NCBI RefSeq assembly: GCF_002798405.1
Contig: NZ_PGGV01000015.1
Span: 1 to 64,000, forward strand
DNA from: Glycomyces xiaoerkulensis
GTDB lineage: Bacteria > Actinomycetota > Actinomycetes > Mycobacteriales > Micromonosporaceae
Reading direction: 5' to 3'
DNA: 64,000 nucleotides
The position numbers and the translations under genes were made by a program. Positions 1 to 12,919 of this stretch are shown piece after piece. Below the pieces are notes generated by a model. It was not told the DNA's origin, ran no database searches, and worked only from the letters and a program-made list of their open reading frames with translations. Positions within the stretch are counted from its first letter, which is position 1, and each line of letters begins with the position of its first letter.

Positions 1-1
1 A

Positions 2-523
2 ACCGCGCTCGCCGTGACCGCGGGAACCCTGCTCGCCCTCGGCCTCACCGCGCCCGCCGCCGGCCACCACCCCGAAGGACCACCGCAACCGTTCTTCGCC
101 GAACACGACGACACCTGCACCTTCACCGAGACCAAGGGCCAACTGTCCTGGGCCGCCACGCACCCTCCCCAGCCCCCGGCGGTCAACCTCCGGGGACAGG
201 CGCAGTCGGCCAACCTCGGCGACTGCAACTACCTCGTACCGGTCGTCCCCTACATCGAACTCCAGGCCTACGACCTCGACGACACCGCCGACGAGGCGGA
301 CTGGGAGACCGCCGCCACCGCAGTGGACCGCGAGGTCGTCCCCATCCCCGACGACAACCCGATCGACTTCCGCGCCCAGCTCACCCCCACCGCCTGGATC
401 GGAATCGAGCCACCCGACATCGATGTCGTAACCGTCCGCGCCTGCCTCACCACCCGGGTCCACCCGCCCGAGGACCAGACCTACGACGGCGACTGCGGCA
501 AACCCGACGTCCACCACCCGTAG
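2..523 (+). CDS. Secreted hypothetical protein, 5' end missing
   Basis: The frame is open from the first bases of the window. A GTG at 14 could start it, but the codons before it (T-A-L-A) continue the hydrophobic run LLALGLTAPAAG, so the real start is probably outside the window. That run looks like a signal-peptide core with a cleavage site near APAAG. The mature part of about 150 residues is acidic and has four cysteines (in DDTC, GDC, RAC and GDC contexts) that could form disulfides outside the cell. I recognise no family. The downstream neighbour is convergent, with a hairpin between them. Confidence 0.6.
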   Translation, partial: TALAVTAGTLLALGLTAPAAGHHPEGPPQPFFAEHDDTCTFTETKGQLSWAATHPPQPPAVNLRGQAQSANLGDCNYLVPVVPYIELQAYDLDDTADEADWETAATAVDREVVPIPDDNPIDFRAQLTPTAWIGIEPPDIDVVTVRACLTTRVHPPEDQTYDGDCGKPDVHHP

Positions 524-598
524 CGGGCGCCGACCCCGGGACCGGCCTTCATCCGAACCAATGAGGAGCCGGATCCCTTGGAAATCGGCCGGTCCCGT

Positions 599-626
599 GA
601 TCACGCCCGCCGCTCCGGGCGTGATC
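599..626. terminator. Hairpin between convergent genes
   Basis: Perfect 11-bp arms (GATCACGCCCG and its complement) around a 6-nt loop. It lies between the stop of the secreted protein and the stop of the DUF998 gene. No T-tract follows on either strand, so it is a terminator-like hairpin rather than a textbook intrinsic terminator. Confidence 0.5.
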
Positions 627-668
627 CTGCGCGTCCTACCTGCATCTGGATCGCACCTTGTGCGCAGC

Positions 669-1352
669 CTATGCGGTCGCCGAGTAGTGGACCCGATTCC
701 GAGTCGATCGCAGGCGTTGGACCGCCACGGCACCGAACCACGTGAAGCCGACGGCGATGGCGATGCGCTGCCACAGGCCGTGCCACGAGCCGGTCTGCGT
801 GGTCGAATCGAACAGCGCCAGGGCCGCCATGAGCGTTCCCAGGGACACCGCGGCGGCCGCGACCGTGTACCACATCCAGGGCCTCATGTCCGGATCGTCG
901 GCGAACCGCCAGGCCATGACCGCCATCGCAGCGGTCATGGCCAACCAGGTCGGCAACAGGTTGTTGTCGTGGATCGAACCGACGAGCGTCCCGGTTGCGG
1001 TCCCGGTGCCCCCTGGCGGGTAGCCGGGTTTGGGGTCGACCACGAAGGCTCCGGCGATGACGAGCCCGATGCCGAACAGGCCGACCAGCAACGGTCCGGC
1101 GACGGCGGCCCGGCCGTGGACCAGCGATCGGCGCAGCCCGACTGCGAAGGCCACCGTGAGCACACCGGCCGCAATGAAGGCGGCGATCACCGTCCAGCCG
1201 CGCTCACCGTTGGCCAGCTCGCTGCCGAAGCGCGACCACGGGTCGTAGCCGGGCCGGGTGAAACTCTCGACGAGCAGGACGATCACGAACAGGCTGGGCC
1301 CGAATCCGGCCGCGAGCAGGGCCCGGTCGATCCAGAAGATTGAAACGCTCAT
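669..1352 (-). CDS. DUF998 family membrane protein
   Basis: This 227-residue protein has about six hydrophobic segments and fits the DUF998 family of actinobacterial integral membrane proteins, whose function is unknown. Supporting features are the WSRFGSELANGERGW segment after the first helix and a conserved-looking DNNLLPTW segment in the middle. I chose the ATG at 1352 because AAGGAG lies six bases upstream and because coding character stops there; the frame stays open further upstream but that part is arginine/serine-rich noise. It is divergent from a TetR gene, and the shared operator overlaps its ribosome site, so it is probably the repressor's target. Confidence 0.75.
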   Translation of the reverse strand: MSVSIFWIDRALLAAGFGPSLFVIVLLVESFTRPGYDPWSRFGSELANGERGWTVIAAFIAAGVLTVAFAVGLRRSLVHGRAAVAGPLLVGLFGIGLVIAGAFVVDPKPGYPPGGTGTATGTLVGSIHDNNLLPTWLAMTAAMAVMAWRFADDPDMRPWMWYTVAAAAVSLGTLMAALALFDSTTQTGSWHGLWQRIAIAVGFTWFGAVAVQRLRSTRNRVHYSATA

Positions 1353-1357
1353 AGAAC

Positions 1358-1376
1358 TCCTTATCACTGATAAGGA
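1358..1376. promoter_or_regulatory. TetR-type operator palindrome
   Basis: TCCTTATC-ACT-GATAAGGA is a perfect inverted repeat with 8-bp arms and a 3-nt centre. It lies between the divergent starts at 1352 and 1405. Its left arm contains the AAGGAG ribosome site of the DUF998 gene on the minus strand. Size, symmetry and position are as expected for autoregulation by the adjacent TetR protein; the binding itself is inferred. Confidence 0.8.
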
Positions 1377-1404
1377 TGATTGCACGGTGCTAAGATGCTC
1401 TCTC

Positions 1405-2079
1405 GTGACCGATGGACACGGTGGCGGAGACCACCGCCCGGGGCTGACCCGCCAAGCCGTGGTGGAGGCGGCACTGCGCCTGCTCGACCGGGTCGGCCTC
1501 GACGCGCTCAGCACCCGCCGCCTGGCCGCCGAGTTCGGGGTGAAGTCGTCGGCGTTGTACTGGCATTTCCGTGACAAGGAGGAGCTACTGGGGGCGATGT
1601 CGGCGACGATCCAACTCGCTCAAGACTTCTCCGGCCCGTCCGAGGGCGAAGCGTGGGCCGAGTGGCTGGTCCGCCGGGGCCGCGAGCATCGCCGTCTCCT
1701 GCTGGCCCACCGCGACGGCGCCCGCCTGGTCACGGCCACCAGCCCGGGCCCGGAGGTGGCCGCCCAGGTCGAAGGCGAGCTGGCCGTTCTGGTCAAAGCG
1801 GGCTTCAGTCCCGCGGCCGCTCTCAGGTCGGTGATGGCCATCGGCCACTACGTGACCGGATTTGTGCTGGCCGAGCAGGGCGACCCCCACGACTCCGCCG
1901 ACGGCCCGCCCGCAGGGGCGGCCGAACTACTGGAGGCCAACCCCGTCTTCGCCGACGCGATTGCCGAAGGCGGCGATCCCCAAAGCGAAGCGGCCTTCGA
2001 ACACGGCCTGCACATGCTCGTCAACGGCATGCGCCCTTATCCGAAGCCGCCCGCTAAGGCATTGAGGGAGCGCCCGTGA
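1405..2079 (+). CDS. TetR family transcriptional regulator (TetR_C-like)
   Basis: This 224-residue protein has an N-terminal helix-turn-helix at about residues 15-60: LTRQAVVEAALRLLDRVGLD, then LSTRRLAAEFGVKSSALYWHF, the classic TetR recognition-helix pattern. The C-terminal part (LLLAHRDGARLV, then VMAIGHYVTGFVLAEQ) resembles the ligand-binding domain of tetracycline-repressor-type members. GTG at 1405 is the first start that keeps the HTH near the N-terminus; the frame remains open upstream but runs through the operator. It is divergent from the DUF998 gene, and its GTGA end overlaps the following acetyltransferase, so the two are probably co-transcribed. The ligand cannot be told from the sequence. 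Confidence 0.88.
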   Translation: MTDGHGGGDHRPGLTRQAVVEAALRLLDRVGLDALSTRRLAAEFGVKSSALYWHFRDKEELLGAMSATIQLAQDFSGPSEGEAWAEWLVRRGREHRRLLLAHRDGARLVTATSPGPEVAAQVEGELAVLVKAGFSPAAALRSVMAIGHYVTGFVLAEQGDPHDSADGPPAGAAELLEANPVFADAIAEGGDPQSEAAFEHGLHMLVNGMRPYPKPPAKALRERP

Positions 2080-2597
2080 CCCGCCGCCACCGACCCCTGC
2101 CTGGCCCGACCGACCGACTCGTCTTCCGGGAGATGACCGAGGACGACCTTGAGGACATGGCCGGGCTCCTCGGCGATCACGACGTGATGCGCCACTACCC
2201 CCGCCCCAAGACGAGGGAGGAAGCCTTCGCCTGGATCGAGTGGAACCGGCGCCTCTACGAGCAGGAAGGATTCGGACTCTGGCTCGTCGCTCTGCGGACG
2301 ACCGGCGAGTTCGTGGGCGACTGCGGCCTGACCTTGCAGGAGATCGAAGACGTCACCTACCTGGAGGTCGGCTACCACGTCCGGGCCGAGCTGCAGGGCA
2401 ACGGCTATGCGACCGAAGCGGCGGCGGCCTGCTGCGACCACGCCCGCCACCGCCTGGGTGCGAAGCGACTGGTCGCGATCATCGCCCCGGACAACCAGCC
2501 GTCGCAGCGCGTCGCCGAGAAGATAGGCCTGGCATTCGAGCGAAACGCCATATCGCGGTCAGGCGAGAGCGTCCGTATCCACGCCACGACCTGGTGA
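2076..2597 (+). CDS. GNAT family N-acetyltransferase (RimJ/RimL-like)
   Basis: This 173-residue protein has the layout of GCN5-related acetyltransferases acting on protein N-termini or small amines. It opens with TDRLVFREMTEDDLEDMAGL, has the core strand segment EVGYHVRAELQGNGYATEAA with the acetyl-CoA-binding QGNGYA turn (Q/RxxGxG/A), and a final RLVAIIAPDNQPSQRVAEKIG segment. This is the usual RimJ/RimL order. The GTG start overlaps the TetR stop as GTGA, suggesting translational coupling. The substrate is unknown. Confidence 0.85.
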   Translation: MTRRHRPLPGPTDRLVFREMTEDDLEDMAGLLGDHDVMRHYPRPKTREEAFAWIEWNRRLYEQEGFGLWLVALRTTGEFVGDCGLTLQEIEDVTYLEVGYHVRAELQGNGYATEAAAACCDHARHRLGAKRLVAIIAPDNQPSQRVAEKIGLAFERNAISRSGESVRIHATTW

Positions 2598-3122
2598 CCG
2601 CTGGAGAGGCGGCCAGTTGGTTCACGCCCGAACGACGCCGTTTCACTCCGCTTGCGAGCCACAACCGGTCACTCAACGGCGCGGAACCGCTCGATGAGTC
2701 CTCCGGCAAGAGCTTCCGTGACGATGATCGAACTTGGCCTCTGACTCTGAATTCGACTCTTATTGCTCCTCGGCGCCAGGTCCGCCGGGACCGCTTCAAT
2801 CGAGCTGTGAACGCGAGAAGACCCTGCTACCGGTGTCTTGATATCTACATCCAGCGACGTCGTACCCGAGCAGTCACCCCAGGTCACGGCGTTGATTTCG
2901 CGCCTTGCTGACGAGCTGCCCCCGCGGCGACCCCCTCGATGCCCACCATGGGCGCGGCGGAGGGCGCGACCTTGCCGGTGAGGCCTTCTACGACATGCAC
3001 TGATGTCGGTCTGCCGTCGTGGACTGCGATCGGAGCCGGTCTGCTGGAACGGGATCGAGCGGTGGATGCCTCGACGGCTGCTCGGGCCACCGATGGGCGC
3101 TTGGAACGGGTAGGTTGCTTAC
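2598..3122. other. Non-coding stretch before the Nif3-family gene
   Basis: About 525 nt without a convincing gene; the open frames have no coding character or recognisable product. It contains the first copy of a 21-bp repeat (2877-2897). TAGGTT at 3110-3115 sits a few bases before the GTG at 3123 and could be the -10 box of a leaderless promoter. Confidence 0.5.
2877..2897. repeat. 21-bp direct repeat, copy A
   Basis: This copy matches positions 4090-4110 at 20 of 21 bases (only base 16 differs, T against C). Weaker similarity continues about 25 bp to the left of both copies (CAGCGAC against TAGCGAC and scattered further matches). Copy B sits exactly at the edge of the AT-rich island. Confidence 0.8.
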
Positions 3123-3929
3123 GTGGCTATGAAAGCTCAGGACGTCGTAGATCTTGTCGATGCGCATCTCGGAGTTCCCCGACGCAAAGCGACGGTTGAC
3201 GAGTATCTTGCGGGTGGCCCGGATCAGGAGATCCATGGCGTCGCTTTCACCATGATGGCGACGCTCGACGTGCTCCAGCACGCGGTCGAGCAGGGGCTCG
3301 ACCTGGTTATCTCCCACGAACCGCTGTACTTCCACCATCGCGGGGAATGGAACGCGATGCTCTCAGCCGAGGCCGACCCGGTCCACCACGTGAAGTCGGC
3401 GTTCATCGCACGGCACCGGCTGGTCGTACGACGCCTCCACGACGCGATGCACGACACCCGCCCCGATCGGACCGTCGACGGAGCCGCGCATGCTCTGGGT
3501 TGGGAGGACTTCGAGCGCGCCGACCTGTCGGCGACCTTCGACATCCCGGCCACGACGCTCGGCTCGCTCGCCGAGTATGCGGCGCGGACCCTCGGCGCCG
3601 GCGCCCTCCGCTATATCGGCAACCCCGATCTGCCGGTCACGGTCGCCGGGATTCAGCCCGGCTTCTGGGGTTTCGAGAAGAATCGCGCGATGCTTGCCCA
3701 CCCCGAAGTCGACGTGCTTCTCATCGGAGAGTCGAACGAGTGGGAGACCGCCGCCTATGCCACCGACGCCGTCGGTGCCGGTCTGCCCAAGGGGCTCATC
3801 GTTATCGGCCATGTGCCCTCGGAGCAGGAGGGGATGTCCGAGATGGCGGACCGCCTCGCGGACCTCCTGCCCGGATTCCCCGTTGACTTCATTCCCACCG
3901 TAGACTCCTTCCGCACCGTGTCCGCCTAG
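3123..3929 (+). CDS. Nif3-like dinuclear metal centre protein
   Basis: This 268-residue protein belongs to the Nif3/YqfO family, ring-shaped proteins that bind two metal ions; some members are annotated as GTP cyclohydrolase I type 2, but the physiological role is unsettled. Visible landmarks are the opening helix AQDVVDLVDAHLGVP, LDLVISHEPLYFHHR with the metal-binding His, the central HDAMH segment with further His ligands, and the C-terminal VDVLLIGESNEWE / LIVIGHVPSEQEGM block that carries the last metal ligands. GTG at 3123 and ATG at 3129 are both possible starts. It stands alone between two copies of the 21-bp repeat. Confidence 0.82.
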   Translation: MAMKAQDVVDLVDAHLGVPRRKATVDEYLAGGPDQEIHGVAFTMMATLDVLQHAVEQGLDLVISHEPLYFHHRGEWNAMLSAEADPVHHVKSAFIARHRLVVRRLHDAMHDTRPDRTVDGAAHALGWEDFERADLSATFDIPATTLGSLAEYAARTLGAGALRYIGNPDLPVTVAGIQPGFWGFEKNRAMLAHPEVDVLLIGESNEWETAAYATDAVGAGLPKGLIVIGHVPSEQEGMSEMADRLADLLPGFPVDFIPTVDSFRTVSA

Positions 3930-4024
3930 CGGCGCACGCGCGACAGAAGGCTGTTAGCGCCGCGGCCCTGTCGAGCCGGCGGCACCCCTTCCCGACGGGG
4001 GCCGAACATGCCACCGCAGGAAAC

Positions 4025-4050
4025 AAAAAAGGCCCTGTAACCAGGGCCTT
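4025..4050 (-). terminator. Intrinsic terminator hairpin
   Basis: AAGGCCCTG-TAAC-CAGGGCCTT (4029-4050) is a perfect 9-bp hairpin. Six A residues at 4025-4030 give a U-tract when read on the minus strand, so it works best as a minus-strand terminator. The nearest gene to its left is the plus-strand Nif3 gene, so the signal faces transcription coming from the island side. Confidence 0.65.
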
Positions 4051-4089
4051 CGTACTGTGCACCTAGCGACCGCCTATCTGAACCCATCG

Positions 4090-4110
4090 CCCCAGGTCAC
4101 GGCGCTGATT
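4090..4110. repeat. 21-bp direct repeat, copy B, at the island edge
   Basis: This is the partner of 2877-2897. Base composition changes at its right end: from 4111 on the sequence is AT-rich for about 2.4 kb. This makes it the likely left boundary, or a relic of the left boundary, of the transferred segment. Confidence 0.75.
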
Positions 4111-4264
4111 ATTGACATTCGTAGCATACTTCACAAAAGTATCTAATAGCTATATACAACACATATTACGACTATTGACTCGGACGTTCCCGATACGCCA
4201 CAGGCATGTGGAGACAGGCAGCCAGGTAACATCGAGCTCCCGGTTGGAGGAGCCTTATACCAAG
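4111..4264 (+). promoter_or_regulatory. AT-rich leader of the reverse transcriptase gene
   Basis: About 154 nt of markedly AT-rich sequence between the repeat and the chosen RT start. TTGACA at 4112-4117 could be a -35 box; no convincing -10 at standard spacing is visible. The RT frame stays open through this stretch, but its translation does not look like protein. Several defence RTs use a non-coding RNA next to the gene, so this leader is where one could lie; I could not derive a reliable fold. Confidence 0.35.
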
Positions 4265-6241
4265 ATGGAACCACCTAAGAACGAATACTTGCAAATTCAA
4301 CCCAAAGTCTCGCTGAACGATATCACCAGACCGAACTTTATACGGGAACAATGGAAGAAGCTCCGAAGAAAGGTTCTACTATCATCTAACCTTAGTGATC
4401 TCTACCTAGATATCGATCCTATCGATTACGCAGGAATCGAATGGGCAATAGAAGACATTATTACTAACCTATGTGAAGAGATCGAGTCAAATCGCTATCA
4501 GCCTGAACAGGCCCGTATCGTTAGAACTGCAAAAGGTAACGGACTTTCACGGCCTCAAGCATATCTGGATCTTAGAGACCTACTCCTCTATAGATCAATT
4601 ATGCATAAGACCGAGAAGGCTATTCTCGATGGCAACACAGAGTGGGTTGGATTCCGCAAGAGCGAAAAGAACTCGTCTCCAGACGAATCCGGTGTGGAAC
4701 CCGGATATTCCGGAAGCTGGTATAAGCTCTGGCTAAAGGAGTACGGAGTCGTATCCAAAATGCTCGACATCGATGATGTCAAGTTCATCGTCGAGACCGA
4801 TATTTCAAACTACTTTGGCTCCATTCAACCGGAAACTATACGAGAACATCTATATTCTCAAACCATCCTTGACAAAGTTACTTCGAGACTCTGCATAAAG
4901 ATCATTGAAGGAGTGATGCCTAAACCAGACTATGCAAGGGAGTCCCCATTTGGCCTACCACAGGAGATATCTGGATCTTCCCGCACTATTGCACATAGCC
5001 TGCTATTCCATCTCGATAGCGAGTTCTTCCCAGAAGGTCAGCAAAACCGATACTCACGCTTCATGGATGACATAACAATCGGCGTCAAGTCGAAACGACA
5101 GGGCCTACTTTATGTCTCCCGACTCCAAGCACGACTGGAGGAACTCGGACTATACATCAATGGAGCCAAGACAAAGATCGAGAGCGTTGAAGATTACAAG
5201 GATCAGATTCTCGCGCTTACCAACGGCGAGATTCAGAAGATTGAATATTCCATAGATTCTTCATCCCGCAAGCTTCACGATATCCGAGTATACCACCCCC
5301 AAGAATCTACTATGACCGAATTGAAGGCCCTCGCCACACAACACCGCGAGCTGTTTCAGCGACCCCGGCGATGGGACCGCGTCCTTAAACGTCTGTACAC
5401 ACTTCAACGCAAGATCGGCATTGAGGATTGGATGCCACACTGGCAAGATGACCTGATTACCAATCCGAAACTAGCTGGCGCAATCCTGGAGTATGTTCGA
5501 TCATTTCCCCTTACAGAATGCACTCTCGATAGTCTTATTCGCACCAGCCAAGAGCTCAGCGGGCTCTACACCGATATCGGCATTCTAATTCCCGAGACAC
5601 TGGCTACAACCCCTGTTGAGGCAGATCCAGAACTTTGGAAGATTATCGCAGACCAATGCATCAAAGAATTCCAAAGGAATGCACGGCGCGGCGCCAAGTC
5701 TGCGCAGCATGACCAAATTGCATCTGCATGGATGACTCCAGCTTGGAAATTTGCGAACCCGGCGCAACGAAGCTCACTTATTTCACAAGCTAAAGATGCA
5801 ACGCTCAGGAGCCGAACAATTGGGTTTCAGCTTACTCCACTCATAGCTTCAAGTTCTAGGAATATTGATTCACCTAGCAAAGACCTCTCCACACGAGTTC
5901 AGACAAACATCGACTTCCTTCGAAGCCTCATAGACGGCAACAAGAAAGCACTAGAAATAGGTTATCGAAGAATTCAGCCTAGGTCAGTCCTGCTTCCAAA
6001 TCGGTACATGACCAGACCTAGGTCTATTCCACTTATCGAAATTATTGGCGATTCTGATCCAGATCGACAGAGGCGCAATACAAGATTCGAGTCGTACCTC
6101 AATCACCTCCAACTAAACCCAGATCGACTCCGGGACCGCCAGATGGAAGCGATTTTTGAGAAGTGGACTGAGTTATTCTTTAGGCGCCTGTTCGCTGACA
6201 CGCATTTGCATTACGGAATCAGTGTATTTGGCGTAATCTAG
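4265..6241 (+). CDS. Reverse transcriptase, defence-associated (DRT/Abi-like)
   Basis: This 658-residue protein is an RNA-directed DNA polymerase. Motifs in order: FIVETDISNYFGSI with catalytic Asp179; FGLPQEISGSSRTIAHS at about 229-245; RFMDDITIG at about 265-273 with the Asp pair; and LGLYINGAKTKIES at about 295-307. There is no maturase X domain, HNH or integrase domain. After the polymerase come about 330 residues of probably helical sequence, as in Abi/DRT defence RTs. Motif 4 reads LPQE where group II RTs usually have PQG. ATG at 4265 is preferred; GTG 4207 or TTG 4244 are alternatives, and GGAGGAG at 4246-4252 is a possible but distant ribosome site. GC content is far below the neighbours, which indicates recent transfer. 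The 3' end overlaps the convergent CYTH gene by 69 nt. Assignment as an RT is firm; the subfamily is inferred. Confidence 0.85.
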   Translation: MEPPKNEYLQIQPKVSLNDITRPNFIREQWKKLRRKVLLSSNLSDLYLDIDPIDYAGIEWAIEDIITNLCEEIESNRYQPEQARIVRTAKGNGLSRPQAYLDLRDLLLYRSIMHKTEKAILDGNTEWVGFRKSEKNSSPDESGVEPGYSGSWYKLWLKEYGVVSKMLDIDDVKFIVETDISNYFGSIQPETIREHLYSQTILDKVTSRLCIKIIEGVMPKPDYARESPFGLPQEISGSSRTIAHSLLFHLDSEFFPEGQQNRYSRFMDDITIGVKSKRQGLLYVSRLQARLEELGLYINGAKTKIESVEDYKDQILALTNGEIQKIEYSIDSSSRKLHDIRVYHPQESTMTELKALATQHRELFQRPRRWDRVLKRLYTLQRKIGIEDWMPHWQDDLITNPKLAGAILEYVRSFPLTECTLDSLIRTSQELSGLYTDIGILIPETLATTPVEADPELWKIIADQCIKEFQRNARRGAKSAQHDQIASAWMTPAWKFANPAQRSSLISQAKDATLRSRTIGFQLTPLIASSSRNIDSPSKDLSTRVQTNIDFLRSLIDGNKKALEIGYRRIQPRSVLLPNRYMTRPRSIPLIEIIGDSDPDRQRRNTRFESYLNHLQLNPDRLRDRQMEAIFEKWTELFFRRLFADTHLHYGISVFGVI

Positions 6242-6742
6242 ACTGTCAATGACCCCGAGTTTGGTAGCTACAGTGCGAACAGTCCCTAGCGCGGACTCCA
6301 GGTCAACCTCCGAAGCCAAGGTCTCGATCTCAAGAAAGGTACCGTCTAGTTCAGGTACATTCACAATAGTTGCAAGGATCAAGCGATCGCAGTAGGTGAA
6401 GCGATAGTTCTGACAACGTTTCGTTAGGCTTACCAGCTCGACCATTCCCAAGTCGCGGAGCAGAACTTCGACAGAGTTCGGGTCGGCGACGACTGTTTCG
6501 TGCTCAGGTTTAGAGCCACTGGCATCAGCGGGGGGTTGTTTGTAGGTTAGCAGGTGGGTGGTGTCGGTTCGGGTTTCGATGGTGCGGAGGCGGATTTCTC
6601 GGCCTTCGGTGTCGAGGCGGTGGTCGGGCCAGTCGTAGTAGGTGTCGTGGTAGGTAGCGGGTTCTTCGGTGGCGCGTTCGCGGAGCCAGCGCCGGACGGC
6701 TTCGACGTCGCGGACTCGGGCTTTCAGCTCGGCTTCGATCAC
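6173..6742 (-). CDS. CYTH-domain protein (class IV adenylate cyclase/triphosphatase-like), mosaic gene
   Basis: This 189-residue protein starts with MIEAELKARV, containing the ExExK signature of the CYTH fold (CyaB adenylate cyclase, thiamine triphosphatase). Further triphosphate-tunnel features are the basic/acidic strands REIRLRTIE, LLTYKQPP, CDRLILATIVNVPELDGTFLEIE and the late DYAKYTDSV. It may make cAMP or cleave a triphosphate substrate; the sequence does not decide. Base composition changes within the gene: residues 1 to about 69 use C/G-ending codons like the host, whereas from about residue 70 (near 6535) codons such as AAA, CAA, GAT, TCT and ACA appear, like the RT gene. The gene follows the XRE regulator by 13 nt and overlaps the RT gene tail to tail. 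The start is GTG. Confidence 0.78.
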   Translation of the reverse strand: MIEAELKARVRDVEAVRRWLRERATEEPATYHDTYYDWPDHRLDTEGREIRLRTIETRTDTTHLLTYKQPPADASGSKPEHETVVADPNSVEVLLRDLGMVELVSLTKRCQNYRFTYCDRLILATIVNVPELDGTFLEIETLASEVDLESALGTVRTVATKLGVIDSLDYAKYTDSVMQMRVSEQAPKE

Positions 6743-6755
6743 GGGTACCAGCTTC

Positions 6756-7619
6756 TCAGATCAGGCGGTCGGCGTTCGTCCAGAGGTCTTCAAATTGGCG
6801 GGTGAAGCCGACGTGGAGCATGTTGTACTGCGCGGCGGTGAGGCGGTAGATGCTCGATTGGTGGCCTTCGGTGGTGCTGTTGAACATCGACAGGTAGATG
6901 AGGTCGTCAAGTCGGATGATCCGCCAGGTCGGGAGGGTCGAGTAGACCGCGACATTCAGGTCGAGGTGCGGGTGGTCGGTGAGCTCGCGGAGTCGAGCGA
7001 TCGACAGGCAGATGCCGGCGGTGAAGGACTCTGCTGACTCGCCGATCTCCTTGGCTCGGTGGGCTGCGGCGGGGCTGTCGGGGTCGAGTAGCAGGACTCG
7101 GGCTTTGACCGGTTCGGGTCGTTCGGCGGTCAGCGGTTCGCGCAGGAGGGAATCGTTGAGGCCGATCAGGCCGAGGGCTCGGACGGCCAGCAGATCGACG
7201 GTGCGCGCTTGCCAGGCGGCGTCGCGGATTTCTTTGGCGGCGGAGGCTTGGGAGGCGAAGACGCGTGTGATGCCGATGCGTGCGGCTTGAGCTTCGGAGG
7301 CTTCAGGCTCACCGATTGCAGGGGCGAGTCCGAGCAGGTGGCGGGCTCGGTCAGGCATGCCGAGGCCGTCTGCGATGCGTTCGAGGACTTCGATGCTGGC
7401 GATCTTGCGTCTGCCGTTGAAGATCTCGTTCGTGCGGCCCTGGCCGAGTCCGGTGGCGATGCCGATGCGGGACTGGGTCAAGCCACCATACTGCTGAACC
7501 AAGCGGAAGACGGCGGTCATGTCTCTGGCCGCGAGCGCCTGCCGCATGGAGTCGCGAGTCCAGAGGTCGTCGGGGAGATCCACGGGAACGAACAACGGTG
7601 TGTCCATAGGCATTAACAT
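6756..7619 (-). CDS. XRE family transcriptional regulator
   Basis: This 287-residue protein has an N-terminal Cro/CI-type helix-turn-helix at about residues 40-95: VQQYGGLTQSRIGIATGLGQ, GRTNEIFNGRRKIASIEVLE, then RIADGLGMP. The C-terminal two thirds (VFASQASAAKEIRDAAWQAR, VRALGLIGLNDSLLREPL, ARVLLLDPDS, LSMFNSTTEG) match a sensor-like domain common in streptomycete XRE regulators of unknown ligand, of the DUF5919 type as far as I can judge. Possible ATG starts lie at 7619, 7613 and 7607. It is divergent from the 7763 gene across a palindrome, and probably co-transcribed with the CYTH gene. Confidence 0.75.
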   Translation of the reverse strand: MLMPMDTPLFVPVDLPDDLWTRDSMRQALAARDMTAVFRLVQQYGGLTQSRIGIATGLGQGRTNEIFNGRRKIASIEVLERIADGLGMPDRARHLLGLAPAIGEPEASEAQAARIGITRVFASQASAAKEIRDAAWQARTVDLLAVRALGLIGLNDSLLREPLTAERPEPVKARVLLLDPDSPAAAHRAKEIGESAESFTAGICLSIARLRELTDHPHLDLNVAVYSTLPTWRIIRLDDLIYLSMFNSTTEGHQSSIYRLTAAQYNMLHVGFTRQFEDLWTNADRLI

Positions 7620-7622
7620 TAC

Positions 7623-7637
7623 ATCTCATCATGAGAT
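7623..7637. promoter_or_regulatory. Palindromic operator-like site
   Basis: ATCTCAT-C-ATGAGAT is a perfect inverted repeat with 7-bp arms. It starts only 3 bp upstream of the XRE gene start, in the intergenic region shared with the divergent 7763 gene. Such a site fits binding by an XRE dimer and autoregulation; the binding is inferred. Confidence 0.6.
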
Positions 7638-7693
7638 ACCCGCCTGGGGCTAGCGGGGCCGGTAGGCGGTTCGTGACGATGGGTATTGCACAA

Positions 7694-7730
7694 CGGGCCG
7701 CCGTCCCGATTCCACACGCGCGGCGGCCCG
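7694..7730 (+). other. GC-rich leader hairpin upstream of 7763
   Basis: CGGGCCGCCG at 7694-7703 pairs perfectly with CGGCGGCCCG at 7721-7730 across a 17-nt loop. It lies in the leader of the 7763 gene, about 20 nt before the AAGGAG ribosome site. It could act as an attenuator or mRNA stabiliser. Confidence 0.45.
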
Positions 7731-7762
7731 CTTCACCAGAACTCGTTGAAAGGAGCGTCCTG

Positions 7763-8353
7763 GTGACGACCGCAAGCCTACGAGCCGCCGAGCCCGGCGG
7801 CAAGACCTCACCGGAAGTGCTCGGGGAGTGGACGACCGGCACCGGCAACCGGCTCACACTCATGGCCCGCAAGGGCACCGGATACGCCTCGACCTGGCTG
7901 AACTATCGCGGGCAGCCGGTCAAGATCGGCTACGCCCTGCACTCCGGCGGCGTCGTCCGCTCGGTCTGCTGGGAGGAACCCTGGCGCGACCAGACCGAGG
8001 CATGGAAGGCCGAGCAGCGCCGCCAGATCGCCGCTCTCATCGCCGCCTGGCATGCCGAACAACCGCTCCCGACCAAATCCGATCCGCTACCGGCCTCCGT
8101 GATCGGTACGTTCGACCTCGATGGCTTCCGGTTCGCCGTCGAACCGCAGGTCGCCTCCGAGCAGGCCCTGCTCAGCGTCCTGAACGTTGCGGGCGGCCTG
8201 ACGCCGGTCGCCGATCTGCTGCACGATGCCGGGCGCATCTGCGGGATGGTCACCCGACCAGGCTGGAAGTCGACACCCGATGACCGCAAGCGGCATTGGC
8301 GACGCGAGGCCGAGGCGATCCTGACCCGCGCGGCCGAGCACGGGCGACTCTGA
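7763..8353 (+). CDS. Conserved hypothetical protein
   Basis: This 196-residue soluble protein has strong coding character. The GTG at 7763 has AAGGAG a few bases upstream; the frame is open further left, but that part lies over the hairpin and operator. Visible segments are GYASTWLNYRGQPVKIGYAL, SVCWEEPWRDQTEAWKAEQR, and a C-terminal WHAEQ / HWRREAEAILTRAAEHGRL helix. No catalytic motif or membrane segment is apparent, and I do not recognise a characterised family. Its position, divergent from an XRE regulator and followed by the glycine-rich-domain-like and kinase genes, suggests a small conserved actinomycete cluster. Confidence 0.7.
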   Translation: MTTASLRAAEPGGKTSPEVLGEWTTGTGNRLTLMARKGTGYASTWLNYRGQPVKIGYALHSGGVVRSVCWEEPWRDQTEAWKAEQRRQIAALIAAWHAEQPLPTKSDPLPASVIGTFDLDGFRFAVEPQVASEQALLSVLNVAGGLTPVADLLHDAGRICGMVTRPGWKSTPDDRKRHWRREAEAILTRAAEHGRL

Positions 8354-8410
8354 ATCGACCCCTCTCGCGGGGCCGCCGGGTGGGCGGCGCGCCCCGCACC
8401 CTCATGGCTC

Positions 8411-8457
8411 GGGCGCGGCGGGCAGCTGACCCGAATTCCTCCCGACCCGCCGCGCCC
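8411..8457 (+). other. Long GC-rich hairpin between 7763 and 8549 genes
   Basis: GGGCGCGGCGGG at 8411-8422 and CCCGCCGCGCCC at 8446-8457 form perfect 12-bp arms around a 23-nt loop. It lies in the 195-nt gap between two co-directional genes. No T-tract follows, so its role as terminator or leader structure is open. Confidence 0.5.
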
Positions 8458-8548
8458 AGCTCTACACAACAACGGGCCTCATCCAGGTGCCGTCCGGCCG
8501 GGGAACGGCACCGCAACGATCGTCCCGGCAGAACAGGAACCGATACAC

Positions 8549-9007
8549 ATGCACTCCACTCGGACCAGACACGGGCGCGACCTGATCGCCCCCGCGACCT
8601 TCGACCGGCTGACGGGTCGACTGATAGCCCATCACGACCTCGATTCCGATACCGCCGAGCGCGTGGTCGATCAAGCAGCGGCGTTCATTGCCGCCTGCGC
8701 GGCCACCAGCGCGCCATTGTCGCCCTCGGCTGCCGTGGACTTGGGCTGGCACGCCTTCATCCTGCATACCCGCGACTACGCCGCCTTCTGCGAAACGGTC
8801 GCGGGCGGCTTCATTCACCACGTCCCGCACGTGGAGTCCGCCAACACCGAGGAAGCGGCAGTCCAGACGGCACTCGAACAGACCATGGCGGCGATCCGCG
8901 CTGCCGGGATGTGGGTGGACGAGGAGTTGTGGCGCGTCGACGGCGGCGTCAAGTGCTCGCAGTGCCACAATGGCTGCGCCGACGACCCCCCACCCGACCG
9001 AGCCTGA
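8549..9007 (+). CDS. Glycine-rich domain-containing protein-like
   Basis: This 152-residue protein carries LGWHAFILHTRDYAAFCETV at about residues 65-85, which matches the W-H-x-F-I-L-H-T-x-x-Y-x-x-F-C pattern of the glycine-rich-domain-containing (DUF1399-like) family found in plants and in many actinobacteria, biochemical role unknown. The C-terminus ends with a Cys cluster, KCSQCHNGC, that could bind a metal. The ATG at 8549 follows a weak AGGAA site. It lies 14 nt upstream of the APH-fold gene on the same strand. Confidence 0.7.
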   Translation: MHSTRTRHGRDLIAPATFDRLTGRLIAHHDLDSDTAERVVDQAAAFIAACAATSAPLSPSAAVDLGWHAFILHTRDYAAFCETVAGGFIHHVPHVESANTEEAAVQTALEQTMAAIRAAGMWVDEELWRVDGGVKCSQCHNGCADDPPPDRA

Positions 9008-9021
9008 ACTGGTAGGCGACT

Positions 9022-9912
9022 TTGAGCGCAACTGCCGACGACTGCCTCGATCCCGCCCTCCGCGCGGTCCTTACCGACCGGCTCGGTGGTGGGATCGAGG
9101 CTCGTCCGATCGAGGCGGGCGTGCATGCGGCCTTCACTGGCACTGTCGGAGTGGATGGGCAAGTGTGGTTCTGCAAGGCCACGCCGACCGCCAATGCGCG
9201 GCTTTCGCGCATGCTCGCCGATGAAGCACGAGTAGCTCCGATGCTCAGGGGGCTCGCGCCGGAGTTGGTCGCCTACATCGAGGCGGGCGGGTGGCAGGTG
9301 CTGTTGCTCGAGCATGTTCCCGGTCGTCACGCTGAACTCAGCCCGGGAAGCCCCGACCTGGAGCTACTGGCCGCGGTGGTCGACCAGCTCCATGAGACTG
9401 CCAACAGGCAGCGAGTCGACTCGCTACCGCGACTCGTTGACCAGTGGCGGCGGGCGAGTCCGTGGCGGCGCCTTCAAGCCCTGCCGCAGGCCGACCTGTC
9501 ACCAGCGATAGCCTCTCGGCTCGAGTGGGCCGCAGCGGGCGAGCAGGGCCGCTTGTCGGTGCTGGAGGCCGAGACGCTCGCCCACACCGATCTGCACGCA
9601 CTCAACGTCCTCATCGCCGGCGATCGGGTTCGGATCGTGGACTGGGCGTGGGCCAGAACCGCTCCACCTTGGTTCGACGCGCTCCTGCTCACCGTCCGCC
9701 TGGTCGATGCCGGGCACTCCCCCGCCGACGCGCTCTCTTGGCTCGGAAGCACCAGGCCGGGCCGATCACTCGACGCTACGACCGCAACGGCGGGTCTGAT
9801 CGAGGCCGCCGGGATGTGGACCTGGCTCAGTCGGCGCGACCAAGCCCGGCCCCATCTGAAGACGATCACCGAGGCCGCCATCCGGCTTCTCGATCGCCTG
9901 GCCCTCGCATGA
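9022..9912 (+). CDS. Aminoglycoside phosphotransferase-fold kinase
   Basis: This 296-residue protein has the APH fold. LAHTDLHALNVLI carries the catalytic-loop HxDxxxxN, and RIVDWAWA carries the metal-binding Asp. The N-lobe has VWFCKATPTANARLSRML with the ATP-binding Lys and VLLLEHVPGRH as hinge. These kinases phosphorylate small molecules, and the substrate cannot be inferred; resistance is only one possibility. TTG at 9022 is the chosen start with GGTAGG just upstream. It is the last gene of a three-gene run before a long non-coding stretch. Confidence 0.78.
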   Translation: MSATADDCLDPALRAVLTDRLGGGIEARPIEAGVHAAFTGTVGVDGQVWFCKATPTANARLSRMLADEARVAPMLRGLAPELVAYIEAGGWQVLLLEHVPGRHAELSPGSPDLELLAAVVDQLHETANRQRVDSLPRLVDQWRRASPWRRLQALPQADLSPAIASRLEWAAAGEQGRLSVLEAETLAHTDLHALNVLIAGDRVRIVDWAWARTAPPWFDALLLTVRLVDAGHSPADALSWLGSTRPGRSLDATTATAGLIEAAGMWTWLSRRDQARPHLKTITEAAIRLLDRLALA

Positions 9913-9948
9913 CAGGCCGGAATACGAGTCCGGACCTGCCCTAAGGTG

Positions 9949-9972
9949 CCCGCGGGAGAATATATTGTCGGG
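9949..9972 (+). repeat. Direct repeat copy 1 with AT-rich core
   Basis: CCCGCGGGAGA followed by (A)TATATTGTCGGG. It matches 10288-10310 except for one extra A. The element joins a ribosome-site-like GGGAG to a TTG six bases later, and its TATATT core is unusual in this GC-rich setting. It could be a promoter, an operator or a recombination site. Confidence 0.7.
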
Positions 9973-10287
9973 GTTCGGAGCCACCCCTAGTAACCGGCTT
10001 TGACCAGCCAGAACGCCGGGTAGTCAGCCGCTGCGAGGTGCGGGGGTCCATGTGCCGGACACTGTGCGGGACCCAGCCTGCGGGGGCCAGTTGTCCGGAC
10101 ACTTGTCCGCCGCTCCCACCGGCCCAGCCACATGCAGCGCCGCCCAGCGCGCCCGCAACATTATTCTGGCGGCGCAAACGTGGATCCGGCTCAGTCGGTT
10201 GGACCTGACCGGTTCACACATGACTTGGATCGCGCCAACCGGCCCTGGTCGAGATCGTGGCCCGGCCGTCACCCGTGCTCTGCCGTC

Positions 10288-10310
10288 CCCGCGGGAGATA
10301 TATTGTCGGG
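10288..10310 (+). repeat. Direct repeat copy 2 with AT-rich core
   Basis: Second copy of the element at 9949-9972, 338 bp to the right. Looser similarity continues downstream of both copies, notably CAGCC(T/A)(G/C)CGGGGGCCAG at about 10075 and 10410. Confidence 0.7.
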
Positions 10311-10563
10311 CTTGGCGACTCGGGGGTTCCTCGCGCTGCTACCTGGACGGATGGTGGGTAACCGGGACGCGCTTCGTTCAGGCCCAGTCTGGGAACGCAT
10401 CCGTGGGTACCAGCCACCGGGGGCCAGCTTCAGGGATGCGTGTTGGTCACATTCATCGATCCAGCGGTCAACGGCGGCCAACTCAACGTGGAACGCCTTC
10501 ATTCGGAGCGTCGAACTGCCGGCTTTCCTCCGTGACTACCCTGGCTGAGCTGCAATTGAGCTC

Positions 10564-10638
10564 CCGACTACCCTGGCTACCCTCCCGGTAGTCGGCCATG
10601 AGCACGCTGCCGCGGACCGGAAGCATCCCGGGAGGGTA
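10564..10638. repeat. Nested inverted repeats upstream of the recombinase block
   Basis: CCGACTACC (10564-10572) pairs perfectly with GGTAGTCGG (10587-10595). TACCCTCCCGG (10578-10588) pairs perfectly with CCGGGAGGGTA (10628-10638). The two pairings compete for 10587-10588. GACTACCCTGGCT also occurs twice, at about 10534 and 10567. Operator, attachment-site or RNA-switch roles are all possible. Confidence 0.6.
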
Positions 10639-10736
10639 ACCATCCCTGACCTGCGCAGTAACCACCTACACGGTGCCCCCAATTCCGCATCAAGACTCGC
10701 TCCCGCCGAATCCCGTACGATGGAGGGGAGTCTGGA

Positions 10737-10964
10737 TTGTTCGATGCCCGGTGGGACGCACCCCGTGCCGCATCTACCACCGTCTGCTGCGCCAACGGCT
10801 ACCGGCGAATGGTCGGTCTTCTTCGAAGTCGACCCGGCACCGCCGATCTCCAGCTTCTGCTCCGTCATCACCGTTTCGGAATGCGGATCTTCGGACCGGG
10901 AATTCGCCGCTCCTACGACGCCCGGGCTTCGCGGGCGCTCGACGCAGTCACGGAGTTCCTCTAG
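10737..10964 (+). CDS. Small hypothetical protein
   Basis: A 75-codon frame starting at TTG 10737 with GGAGGGG eight bases upstream. About 70 % of third positions are G or C, which is moderate support for coding. The product is basic (RRMVGLLRSRPG, LLLRHHRFGMRIFGPGIRR) and ends with a short helix SRALDAVTEFL; it has no recognised domain. A second frame starting at ATG 10720 overlaps it but has poorer codon use. It precedes the recombinase block on the same strand. Confidence 0.4.
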   Translation: MFDARWDAPRAASTTVCCANGYRRMVGLLRSRPGTADLQLLLRHHRFGMRIFGPGIRRSYDARASRALDAVTEFL

Positions 10965-11000: not shown

Positions 11001-11192
11001 GTGGTGGCCCTGGTGAGCCGCCGTGATGACTCGATCCGAGTCACCGGGAAACGATGCGAAACACTCGATACCCGCCAGCTCGCTCACCTGCTCGTCCGCA
11101 TGGCCCAACGCCAGCCCGACGGTGCCGAGCCAGCCCCGTGCCAGGGCGTCAGACGAATCGACGGCAATCTTGAAGGCGAGTTCGAGGAATGA
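11001..11192 (+). CDS. Small protein coupled to the serine recombinase
   Basis: A 63-residue frame whose stop overlaps the recombinase start as ATGA (11189-11192), so translation is probably coupled. Its middle (TLDTRQLAHLLVRMAQRQ) looks like an amphipathic helix and its C-terminus is acidic (LEGEFEE). GTG at 11001, 11004 or 11013 could be the start. Position and size fit an accessory protein of the recombinase, for example a regulator or directionality factor, but no homologue is recognised. Confidence 0.5.
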   Translation: MVALVSRRDDSIRVTGKRCETLDTRQLAHLLVRMAQRQPDGAEPAPCQGVRRIDGNLEGEFEE

Positions 11193-12880
11193 CATCCAGC
11201 AAGGGCGACAAGCCGCTCCGTGGCGGACGTGCGGTGCTGTATCTGCGGGTCTCGGACCCCAAGCAGGTCAACACCGACTACGACCCCGAGGGCAACTCCA
11301 TCCCCGCGCAACGGAAGGCGTGCATCGAGCTGGCCGGCCAGCTCGGTTTGACGGTCGTCGAGGAGTACGTCGAACCGGGACGCTCGGCGAAGACGATCGA
11401 CCGCAGGCCGCGCTTCAACGCGATGATGGAGCGCGTGCGCCGGGACCGGGATGTCGACGCGATCATCATCTACATGCGCTCGCGGATCTTCCGCAACGCC
11501 GCCGACTCCGCCATGACCCGCCGCGAACTCAAACAACTCGGCGTCTCTCTGCTGTCGGTCAAGGACCCCACCACCGACTCGATATCGGGCGACATGCTCG
11601 CCGGAATCCTCGACGTGGTCAACGAGTACCAATCCCGCGCGGCTGGCGACGACATCGCCTACAAGATGGAGGCCAAGGCCCAGCGTGGCGGCACCCCGAA
11701 CCGGGCGCGGCTGGGATACCTGAACGCCACCGATTCCGTCGAGGGCCGCCCGGTGCGCACCGTCATCCCCGACCCCGAACGCGCGCCGCTGGTGCAGATG
11801 CTCTTCGAGCATTACGCCACCGGCCAGTACACCTTCAAACAACTCCGCGAAACGGTCACCGCCGCCGGACTGCGAACCCGACCGACCAAGCGCTACCCGG
11901 CCGGATGCGAACTGTCGATCCACGCCATCGGCAAGATCCTAAAGGACCGCTACTACCTCGGCAAAGTCCCCTACAAAGGACGCGAATACGACGGCCGCCA
12001 CCAACCGCTCGTGACGGCCGAGCTGTTCGACCAGGTCCAGCAAGTGCTCTACGTTCAGCGCAACGCCGGGACCAGGGACCGCAAGTGGGACCACTACCTC
12101 AAAGGACTGGTGCACTGCGCCCGCTGCAAGCGGCGACTCACCCTGGAGCGCGCCAAGTCCAAGACCAGCCGCTACTACTTCTACTTCCTGTGCCTCGGAA
12201 GAGCCAGCGGCGAATGCGACCTCCCCCGGATGGCCGTCGAAGCCGTCGAAGACCATGTCGTCACACACTGGGCCACCGTCACTATCAGCCATGACGAGGC
12301 CGACGAGATTCGCTCCGGACTCGCCGATGCACTGGAAGCCGAAGGCTCAGTGACCGAGGCGATGCGGCGGGAACTGGAGCGCGAACTGCGGCGCCTCGAG
12401 ACCGCCGAGAATCAGTGCGTCGACCTCATCGGCCATCCCGACTGGCCCGCCGACAAGCTCACCGACAAGATCCGCCGCCTCCGCGACCAGCGCGAGGCCA
12501 TCAATGCTCGGCTCAAAGATGTCCACGCGCAGCGGCTCGACCAGGCCGGCGAGACCGTTGAGCTGCTACTGCAGCTGATGAGTGATCCGAAGCGGTTCTA
12601 TCGTGACGCCGCCGACGATATCCGGCGCATGCTCAACCGGATCTGCTTCAACAAGCTGTTCCTCGATCGAGGCGACCACGGACCTACCGTGAAACGGACC
12701 GAACACGCCGAGACGGCCGGGCCGCTGGTCCGATGGGTGTGCGATCGTAGAGACACCAATGGCGCTACCCCTACGGGTAACGCCACTGAAAACTATGTTC
12801 AAAAACACCCGGGTTCTGATAAGGAACCCTTTGTGCGCGAGGGGGGACTTGAACCCCCACGTCCGTTAATAGGACACTAG
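11189..12880 (+). CDS. Large serine recombinase (integrase)
   Basis: This 563-residue protein has the N-terminal resolvase domain with catalytic Ser22 in YLRVSDPKQ, followed by VEPGRSAKTIDRRPRFNAMM and the RSRIFRNAADS segment with conserved Args. A Recombinase domain follows at about residues 170-270 (NRARLGYLNATD, FEHYATGQYTFKQL). Then comes a zinc ribbon (CARCKRRL at about 310, with later Cys at about 334-344) and a long coiled-coil at about 365-460. This is the large serine recombinase layout used by phages and integrative elements. The frame continues over the tRNA-Leu terminator and 46 nt into the tRNA gene, giving the tail FVREGGLEPPRPLIGH; this end is probably fused chromosomal sequence. 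Confidence 0.88.
   Translation: MTSSKGDKPLRGGRAVLYLRVSDPKQVNTDYDPEGNSIPAQRKACIELAGQLGLTVVEEYVEPGRSAKTIDRRPRFNAMMERVRRDRDVDAIIIYMRSRIFRNAADSAMTRRELKQLGVSLLSVKDPTTDSISGDMLAGILDVVNEYQSRAAGDDIAYKMEAKAQRGGTPNRARLGYLNATDSVEGRPVRTVIPDPERAPLVQMLFEHYATGQYTFKQLRETVTAAGLRTRPTKRYPAGCELSIHAIGKILKDRYYLGKVPYKGREYDGRHQPLVTAELFDQVQQVLYVQRNAGTRDRKWDHYLKGLVHCARCKRRLTLERAKSKTSRYYFYFLCLGRASGECDLPRMAVEAVEDHVVTHWATVTISHDEADEIRSGLADALEAEGSVTEAMRRELERELRRLETAENQCVDLIGHPDWPADKLTDKIRRLRDQREAINARLKDVHAQRLDQAGETVELLLQLMSDPKRFYRDAADDIRRMLNRICFNKLFLDRGDHGPTVKRTEHAETAGPLVRWVCDRRDTNGATPTGNATENYVQKHPGSDKEPFVREGGLEPPRPLIGH
12801..12829 (-). terminator. Terminator of tRNA-Leu
   Basis: GGGTTC (12811-12816) pairs with GAACCC (12824-12829). 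On the minus strand the hairpin is followed shortly by five T residues (12801-12805). It lies directly downstream of the tRNA and inside the recombinase reading frame. Confidence 0.65.
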
Positions 12881-12919
12881 CACCTCAAGCTAGCGCGTCT
12901 GCCATTCCGCCACTCGCGC
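12834..12919 (-). tRNA. tRNA-Leu(GAG)
   Basis: On the minus strand, acceptor arms GCGCGAG and CTCGCGC pair perfectly, with discriminator A at 12834. The anticodon arm is CTAGC-TTGAGGT-GCTAG, giving anticodon GAG. A long variable arm typical of leucine tRNAs and a T arm with GGTTCAAGTCC are present. The 3' CCA is not encoded. The 3' half overlaps the end of the serine recombinase frame on the other strand. Confidence 0.95.

What the first reader, a model, noticed from the sequence alone, without database searches (positions are those of the whole stretch)
4111..6742. AT-rich island coding a defence-type reverse transcriptase next to a CYTH gene
Seen: about 2.4 kb near 45 % GC in a 70 % GC chromosome; an RT with catalytic Asp179, an FMDD box, an unusual LPQE motif 4 and a 330-residue helical tail; and a convergent gene with the ExExK CYTH signature overlapping its last 69 nt. 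Known: stand-alone RTs with helical tails (AbiA/AbiK, DRT) protect against phages; CYTH enzymes make cAMP or cleave triphosphates. Inferred: the two may form one defence unit linking DNA synthesis to nucleotide chemistry. I do not know of a described RT-CYTH system.
Basis: partly seen in the sequence, partly recalled or inferred. Interest (0 to 1): 0.75.

Follow-up and report, generated by a model that had tools for sequence, protein, structure and literature searches.

The report
Lone antiviral-type reverse transcriptase in cargo slot
A bacterium carries a foreign, defence-type DNA-making enzyme in a spot where close relatives carry other, partly defence-like genes; the neighbouring CYTH gene belongs to a different gene pair and marks the edge of that spot rather than being the enzyme's dedicated partner.

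Summary
In detail: an AT-rich gene (4265-6241 +) encodes an intact reverse transcriptase (RT) whose 3' end overlaps a convergent CYTH gene by 69 nt. The RT is a divergent member of the candidate anti-phage family RT_UG13a (PADLOC, E 4e-134), in a deep clade with three other sequences that share the LPxE motif 4. Group II intron and retron RT models stay far below their cut-offs. The proposed RT-CYTH unit is not supported: no CYTH was found in the fetched flanks of 62 other RT genes, 9 of 19 RT-bearing genomes or records have no CYTH at all, and 11 of 12 CYTH orthologues sit behind the same XRE-type gene, none near an RT. The RT is best read as stand-alone defence cargo inserted between a small-ORF remnant (about 4110) and the CYTH 3' end (6173-6212). 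In four related genomes other low-GC genes, several with defence-type matches, fill this slot. In these five loci, not in control loci, DNA identity falls through CYTH to 51-59%, so cargo seems to swap by recombination inside CYTH. Close UG13a relatives show no conserved flanking DNA, although the method sees it for DRT2; template-independent DNA synthesis is the likeliest activity. New member of a known kind.

The parts
4028..4051 (-). terminator-like hairpin before the cargo
   Evidence: terminator scan; the scan found 5 sites in 3900-7800 where shuffles give 2.9 (sd 1.9)
4055..4145 (+). small-ORF remnant VHLATAYLNPSPQVTALIIDIRSILHKSI: a motif found many times in the genus; taken as the left edge of the cargo
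   Evidence: GC falls from 59% (4010-4110) to 46% (4110-4264)
4111..4264 (+). AT-rich leader of the RT gene; no structure beyond chance and no Rfam family
   Evidence: fold z-score 0.79 for 4050-4268, Rfam, GC 45.8%
4265..6241 (+). UG13a-family reverse transcriptase, 658 aa from ATG 4265 (open frame from 4112)
4799..4801 (+). catalytic Asp179 of motif 3 (ETDISNY)
   Evidence: alignments
4955..4966 (+). motif 4, LPQE, a mark of the window's clade
   Evidence: 4 of 4 clade rows have E, 0 of 39 others
5060..5071 (+). motif 5, FMDD
   Evidence: D268 and D269 invariant in 43 rows
6173..6241 (.). overlap: last 22 RT residues and stop read antisense to the CYTH 3' end; right junction of the cargo within about 6173-6212
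   Evidence: the three clade relatives end near window residue 634; CYTH orthologues lose similarity after YTDSV
6173..6742 (-). CYTH-domain gene, 189 aa; partner of the XRE gene, boundary of the cargo slot
6756..7619 (-). XRE-type helix-turn-helix gene with a conserved C-terminal domain, 13 nt upstream of CYTH
   Evidence: HTH_31; conserved pair
11189..12880 (+). large serine recombinase of the mobile region
   Evidence: Pfam Resolvase, Recombinase, Zn_ribbon_recom; also near XRE-CYTH in G021, G009 and G019
12833..12919 (-). tRNA-Leu(gag) overlapped by the recombinase 3' end; probable insertion site
   Evidence: the role as attachment site is inferred

Best explanation
The RT is a stand-alone candidate anti-phage reverse transcriptase (UG13a family) that arrived as foreign cargo in a variable slot of a probably mobile region. 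The constant part of the region is a serine recombinase next to tRNA-Leu plus an XRE-CYTH gene pair; the slot lies between the CYTH 3' end and a small-ORF remnant. Related strains hold other genes there, several of defence type. The cargo appears to be exchanged by homologous recombination within XRE and the 5' third of CYTH, so each cargo brings its own CYTH 3' part. Shown: family, position, slot variability, divergence gradient with controls. Inferred: mobility of the region, recombination as the cause, and function. On phage infection the RT would make DNA without a nucleic-acid template, as the Class 1 systems studied so far do (PMC13174585, passages), and this DNA, or the RT bound to it, would halt phage growth or the cell. 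CYTH would not be needed for it.
For: Family: RT_UG13a 446.6 bits over residues 60-676 of the 709-aa frame, next family 114.1; clade of 4 rows with support 100/99 inside a 46-row UG13a-type group with 99/99. Foreign: 46.9% GC against 70.0%; no match to the UG13a profile in the 21 other genus genomes at E<=1e-3; of 396 phylum genomes only G000 and one other matched at E<=1e-20, and the other is best matched by UG21. Slot: beside CYTH the relatives hold a STAND-type ATPase (AAA_16, below cut-off), an ApeA-like protein (below cut-off), a Hypoth_Ymh protein (below cut-off) with a PDC-M36A protein (130.6 bits), and a DUF4231 protein (above cut-off), at 48-55% GC beside XRE genes of 64-66%. XRE-CYTH pairing: 11 of 12 orthologues. 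RT without CYTH. Swap: in 10 of 10 pairs of the five cargo loci the last CYTH third is 51-59% identical while XRE is 80-93%; in 9 control pairs the last third is at most 11 points below XRE and above it in 5. No cis RNA: 36 of 41 pairs of UG13a RTs at 60-95% protein identity share no DNA similarity in 350 nt on either side, whereas DRT2-type pairs at 86% and 94% share 338 and 282 nt upstream.
Against: No phage test of UG13a turned up in the papers I could search. By sequence the closest solved DRT is DRT9, an RNA-templated Class 2 enzyme (9ioa group, 35.6 bits; UG15 23.2 bits), which pulls against template-independent synthesis; the best solved matches of all are group II intron RTs (83.7 bits). 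The window's own clade is too divergent (28%) for the flank test. Only five loci show the slot; PADLOC gave no match for 4 of the 7 cargo proteins of the other four genomes that were scanned (a fifth matched at 17.6 bits only), and several Pfam hits are below cut-off. No ends of a whole mobile element were mapped.
Confidence: 0.7

Rival explanations
1. RT and CYTH form one dedicated two-gene defence unit in which DNA synthesis is coupled to nucleotide chemistry.
For: Adjacency, a 69-nt overlap, and a CYTH 3' part that differs from that of relatives with other cargo. CYTH domains occur in other conflict systems: a figure legend of PMC10910872 lists CYTH among domains of CARF/SAVED proteins (passage).
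Against: No CYTH in the fetched flanks of 62 other RT genes; 9 of 19 RT-bearing genomes or records without any Pfam CYTH; CYTH paired with XRE in 11 of 12 genomes and no RT in those stretches; the genes converge, so no shared operon; the overlap is explained by a junction.
Confidence: 0.06
2. The RT is a Class 2-like enzyme that copies a cis-encoded non-coding RNA, as DRT2, DRT9 and DRT10 do.
For: The closest solved DRT by sequence is DRT9 (9vku and 9vma of that group are DRT9 by the data statement of PMC12489045, passage).
Against: No conserved flanking DNA in most close UG13a pairs while the same test finds it for DRT2; only 154 nt between the remnant and the start, folding no better than shuffles; no Rfam match other than the tRNA reached its threshold; a C-terminal extension of about 300 residues, unlike the RT-only Class 2 described in PMC12489045 (passage).
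Confidence: 0.2
3. The gene is a decaying or non-defence RT with no present function.
For: No close relative was found, it is rare in the phylum sample, and its C terminus seems to read through an insertion junction.
Against: Full-length open frame with the invariant catalytic residues and a slot that in relatives holds several genes of defence type.
Confidence: 0.15

Closest known systems
UG13a reverse transcriptases (PADLOC RT_UG13a, a candidate DRT family)
   Same: Best profile match along nearly the whole protein; similar length and the same catalytic motifs; UG13a-type genes occur on plasmids and chromosomes of many phyla
   Different: Deep clade of its own, 14-22% identical to 39 other rows and 28% to its 3 sisters; motif 4 LPxE in place of mostly LPQ[IM][ND]; the clade's other members are an actinomycete MAG, an unplaced bacterium and a viral contig
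Class 1 UG/Abi systems (AbiK, AbiA, Abi-P2, DRT4/UG15)
   Same: RT with a long C-terminal extension and no detected cis RNA in close relatives
   Different: Sequence match is weak (UG15 23.2 bits, 7r08 21.9 bits); HEAT-like fold not tested
DRT9 / DRT2 (Class 2, RNA-templated)
   Same: RT domain; DRT9 is the best-scoring solved DRT (35.6 bits)
   Different: No conserved flanking DNA in most close UG13a pairs
Class 3 UG/Abi systems (RT fused to nitrilase or phosphohydrolase; PMC13275509, passages)
   Different: No fusion, and CYTH is not linked to the RT in relatives
Actinomycete integrative elements with serine recombinases, and defence hotspots
   Same: Serine recombinase beside a tRNA gene, variable low-GC cargo; in G006 TrwB-type coupling and Replic_Relax genes lie on the CYTH side (G002 looks alike by eye)
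   Different: The boundary runs inside a CYTH gene; I found no description of an XRE-CYTH-marked slot (paper searches)

Membership tests
UG13a DRT | Best and near full-length match to the family profile | tested here: met
   446.6 bits, profile 6-586 of 589; the three other clade members 271-307 bits, also best; three plasmid members 567-716 bits
UG13a DRT | Catalytic aspartates in motifs 3 and 5 | tested here: met
UG13a DRT | Groups with UG13a rows in a tree | tested here: met
   46-row group 99/99; the window's branch is long (1.5), so its exact place is unsure
UG13a DRT | Protects against phage | not testable with these tools
   experiment needed; 6 held papers contain UG13 and reverse transcriptase, none on bacterial RTs by title
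Class 1 UG/Abi RT | C-terminal HEAT-like repeat domain | not testable with these tools
   structure prediction switched off
Class 2 DRT (DRT2, DRT9, DRT10) | Conserved cis-encoded non-coding RNA | tested here: not met
   tested in close UG13a relatives, not in the window's clade: 36 of 41 pairs without flank similarity; positive control DRT2
Group II intron RT | Curated maturase-RT score; intron RNA | tested here: not met
   TIGR04416 65 bits, cut-off 300; no intron RNA in the Rfam search of 2500-13500
Retron | Curated retron RT score | tested here: not met
   NF038233 31 bits against 235; msr/msd RNA sought only through Rfam
Diversity-generating retroelement | Template/variable repeat pair near the RT | tested here: inconclusive
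   no such pair stood out among the repeats of 20 nt or more listed for 1-14000 (one search shows 20 of 32 families); adenine-specific search not run
CYTH superfamily | Pfam CYTH above cut-off, ExExK | tested here: met
   58.3 bits, cut-off 23.2; E3 and E5 invariant in 9 rows
Class IV adenylate cyclase CyaB | TIGR00318 above cut-off | tested here: not met
   46.5 bits, cut-off 57.95
RT-CYTH defence unit | Recurrent adjacency of RT and CYTH | tested here: not met
   0 of 62 other RT genes; 0 of 12 Pfam CYTH places of 19 RT genomes within the RT loci; no RT around 12 other CYTH orthologues

The most novel reading that the evidence does not exclude
XRE-CYTH is a constant control module for a swappable set of defence effectors (RT, STAND ATPase, DUF4231, HEPN-like genes), and the C-terminal part of CYTH is exchanged together with the effector because the two must match: CYTH would read or hydrolyse a triphosphate signal specific to its cargo. 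The RT and CYTH would then be functionally tied here after all, as one pairing of many. The steep loss of identity in the last CYTH third, seen only in cargo loci, fits this; plain recombination at a gene edge fits it as well.
Probability: 0.12. Interest if true: 0.75.

Novelty: new member of a known kind. Interest (0 to 1): 0.45.

Why it matters
It removes a tempting but unsupported RT-CYTH system and replaces it with two usable things: a deep clade of a DRT family for which I found no experiment, with evidence that close members of the family have no local template RNA; and a cargo slot in an actinobacterial genus that can be mined for new defence genes by anchoring on the XRE-CYTH pair. The CYTH divergence gradient with its controls also offers a simple signature for finding cargo-swap borders.

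Tried and rejected
RT-CYTH operon: rejected (convergent, no co-occurrence). cis RNA upstream of the RT: fold no better than shuffles, no Rfam family. A constant partner gene of UG13a: none seen among 55 loci in 42 RT groups; the largest cluster (9 loci, 7 groups) looks like a housekeeping ABC gene read in mixed frames, and clusters of integrase-like (4 loci) and restriction-modification-like genes (3 loci) were named by eye. Scans with the single RT protein found no relative in genome contigs or viral contigs; the four-row alignment did. The repeated motif at 4055-4109 was first taken for an attachment site; its mostly synonymous changes and the resolvase-like helix-turn-helix that follows some copies (by eye) suggest the start of a small multicopy gene; left open. 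XRE-CYTH as a defence-only pair: in the second family the genes around it that were scanned are ordinary or unnamed. My first CYTH profile missed 7 of the 20 Pfam CYTH places, so it was widened to 33 rows, all of which it recovers (by construction), and a Pfam search of whole genomes was added. A DRT2 search in the phylum gave 1 of 396 genomes, so the control pairs came from plasmids.

Rows dropped or altered: 4 of 45 pairs with under 100 nt of flank were skipped; the two L107 copies were left out because L151 repeats them; one search kept only RT rows over 470 aa and 180 bits; L002 and L065 hold the same RT; I moved the start of the DRT2 gene in L196 120 nt downstream of its annotation to match L197. 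In one search the XRE part of G463 aligns poorly (37-38% in its first half), so its three pairs weigh little. One search was given 20 loci of the RT set; one (L023) is not held.
Full report
What is there. The gene at 4112-6241 + lies in a 45-51% GC stretch of a 70% GC window. The likely start is ATG 4265, because a GGAGGAG precedes it, the upstream TTG sits inside a TTGACA, and D179 falls into register with relatives. The protein has RVT_1 (39.4 bits, cut-off 29.6) and its best defence profile is RT_UG13a (E 4.4e-134; next family UG21, E 1.8e-33). Group II intron, Drt3a and retron models match only far below their curated cut-offs.

Relatives. Plasmid relatives from Leptospira weilii, Azospirillum and Sinorhizobium are clear UG13a members (567-716 bits). 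A four-row alignment used against genome contigs gave 67 loci and against viral contigs one; not all of them are UG13a. In a tree of 55 rows the window RT joins L016, L017 and L083 with support 100/99, and this clade lies beside the other 42 UG13a-type rows (88/87) within a 46-row group (99/99); its own branch is long, so details of its place are unsure. Six further rows were scanned, three of this clade and three of a second deep clade; all have UG13a as best profile. Motif 4 is LP[QV]E in the 4 clade rows and has another residue in the 39 others. L083 is a viral contig; from its frames I read an integrase and a terminase around the RT (by eye).

CYTH belongs elsewhere. In the 22 genomes of the genus, CYTH orthologues at E<=1e-20 occur in G000 and 8 others (a ninth, G012, only at 3.5e-4), and the XRE gene in G000 and 7 others. 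In those 7 the two genes are adjacent in the same order with a short gap; in G004 there is a CYTH without XRE. In 200 genomes of the order, 4 more genomes, all of one other family, carry CYTH orthologues, each with the XRE gene beside it. A profile of the 43 RT rows finds no RT in the fetched stretches around these 12 CYTH genes, which reach 5-8 kb to each side except 2.0 kb on one side in G015 and 1.2 kb in G005; it does find the window's RT. No other genome of the genus has a UG13a match at E<=1e-3.

RTs without CYTH. A CYTH profile found no CYTH in the frames of the RT loci other than the window's own place (65 entries, two of them this place and two more the same RT, so 62 other genes; 22 loci have under 1.5 kb on one side). 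That first profile missed 7 of 20 Pfam CYTH places, so it was widened; the answer stayed the same. Pfam CYTH itself was searched in 19 whole genomes or records that hold such an RT (20 loci given, one not held): 10 have a CYTH, at 12 places, none within the fetched RT loci, and 9 have none; some of these are incomplete or fragments.

The slot. G021 aligns with the window from 6321 to 12067 at 87% and shares XRE, CYTH and the recombinase but not the RT. Next to CYTH it has a 942-aa ATPase (AAA_16 29.7 bits, cut-off 32.6); G015 has a 268-aa and a 511-aa protein (the latter ApeA_NTD1 23.6 bits, cut-off 25.5); G009 has a Hypoth_Ymh protein (21 bits, cut-off 25) and a PDC-M36A protein (130.6 bits; PDC I recall as phage-defence candidate) with a 377-aa neighbour; G019 has a 414-aa frame with DUF4231 (31.5 bits, cut-off 24.7), which I recall as SLATT-related, behind a transposase-like piece (HTH_Tnp_4) in the same frame. 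The other proteins scanned had no PADLOC match, or one of 17.6 bits. These genes are 48-55% GC, the XRE genes beside them 64-66%. In G006 an AAA_15 gene matching AriA/GajA-type profiles lies on the XRE side and TrwB-type and Replic_Relax genes on the CYTH side.

The right border. The three clade relatives end near window residue 634; the last 22 residues of the window RT are read antisense to CYTH. CYTH orthologues agree up to YTxxV and then differ. The junction is therefore within about 6173-6212. Over the XRE and CYTH genes DNA identity between the five cargo loci is flat in XRE and then falls step by step through CYTH. The last third of CYTH is 51-59% identical in all 10 pairs of cargo loci (XRE 80-93%). 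In three control pairs of the genus and six of the other family it is 63-92%, at most 11 points below XRE and above it in 5 of 9. The controls are loci where I saw no defence-like gene directly behind CYTH; in G005 the contig ends 1.2 kb beyond it, and one locus of the other family has an unnamed low-GC gene 2.6 kb away. So the gradient is not a general property of CYTH. Swapping of cargo together with the CYTH 3' part explains it; matched evolution of CYTH and cargo is not excluded.

The left border. At 4055-4109 lies a motif found at 27 other distinct places in the loci examined (one search lists 30 rows: this one, two duplicates, and a weak one at window 2853-2896 among them). In most strong copies it can be read as a peptide VHLA..YLNPSPQVTAL with mostly synonymous changes. 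GC drops right behind it.

How it may work. Published Class 1 systems make DNA without a nucleic-acid template and Class 2 systems copy a cis-encoded RNA (PMC13174585, passages; PMC12632851, passages). I therefore asked whether UG13a flanks are conserved. Of 41 pairs of UG13a RTs at 60-95% identity, 36 share no similarity in 350 nt up- or downstream; 4 share some upstream and 2 some downstream, one pair both. With the same settings a DRT2 pair at 86% identity shares 338 nt upstream and nothing downstream, and a DRT2-like pair at 94% shares 282 nt upstream and 131 nt downstream; the other 26 of 28 pairs, all at 41% or less, share nothing and are uninformative. In the range 83-89%, 8 of 9 UG13a pairs share nothing, though they rest on four lineages. 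This argues against a local template RNA and for template-independent synthesis, yet the best-scoring solved DRT is the RNA-templated DRT9, and the window's own clade could not be tested.

Literature. Six held papers contain UG13 and reverse transcriptase, none on bacterial RTs by title (listing), and the classification paper I recall (Mestre 2022) is not held. No paper on an RT-CYTH defence system or an XRE-CYTH hotspot appeared in the listings. PMC8934634 passages name XRE genes as occasional RT neighbours; its text does not hold the word CYTH.

Verdict. Interest is moderate: the family is known, though I found no experiment on it, and the slot with its recombination-like footprint is the less expected part.

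Noticed in passing
window 4055-4109; G021:C155, G015, G009, G019, G001, G002, G012, G013: A ~55-bp motif encoding VHLA..YLNPSPQVTAL recurs many times in the genus, often after a terminator-like hairpin, up to 4-5 copies in one orientation within 12 kb; some copies run on into a resolvase-like helix-turn-helix, by eye.
   Followed up: partly
window 6756-7619 -: XRE-type protein with a conserved C-terminal domain (VRALGLIGLNDSLLR ... LLLDP ... EGHQS) that had no Pfam match; 93% identical in G021 while its CYTH partner is 71%.
   Followed up: partly
L185:10973-14041 -: A 1022-aa gene of 41% GC about 2.6 kb from an XRE-CYTH pair, with no Pfam or PADLOC match.
   Followed up: no
window 2874-2897 and 4087-4110: A 24-nt direct repeat (92%) flanks the NIF3-like gene 3123-3929, which in G017, G013, G003 and G010 occurs in genomes without the XRE-CYTH orthologues.
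   Followed up: no
L038 and L039 RT genes: UG13a RTs 98% identical in Paracoccus aurantiacus and Nitratireductor, different families, pointing to recent transfer.
   Followed up: no
L025, L028, L032, L034, L035: A second deep UG13a clade with LPVDEF-like and MDDQN motifs, in Acidobacteria, a gammaproteobacterial MAG and an unplaced bacterium.
   Followed up: no
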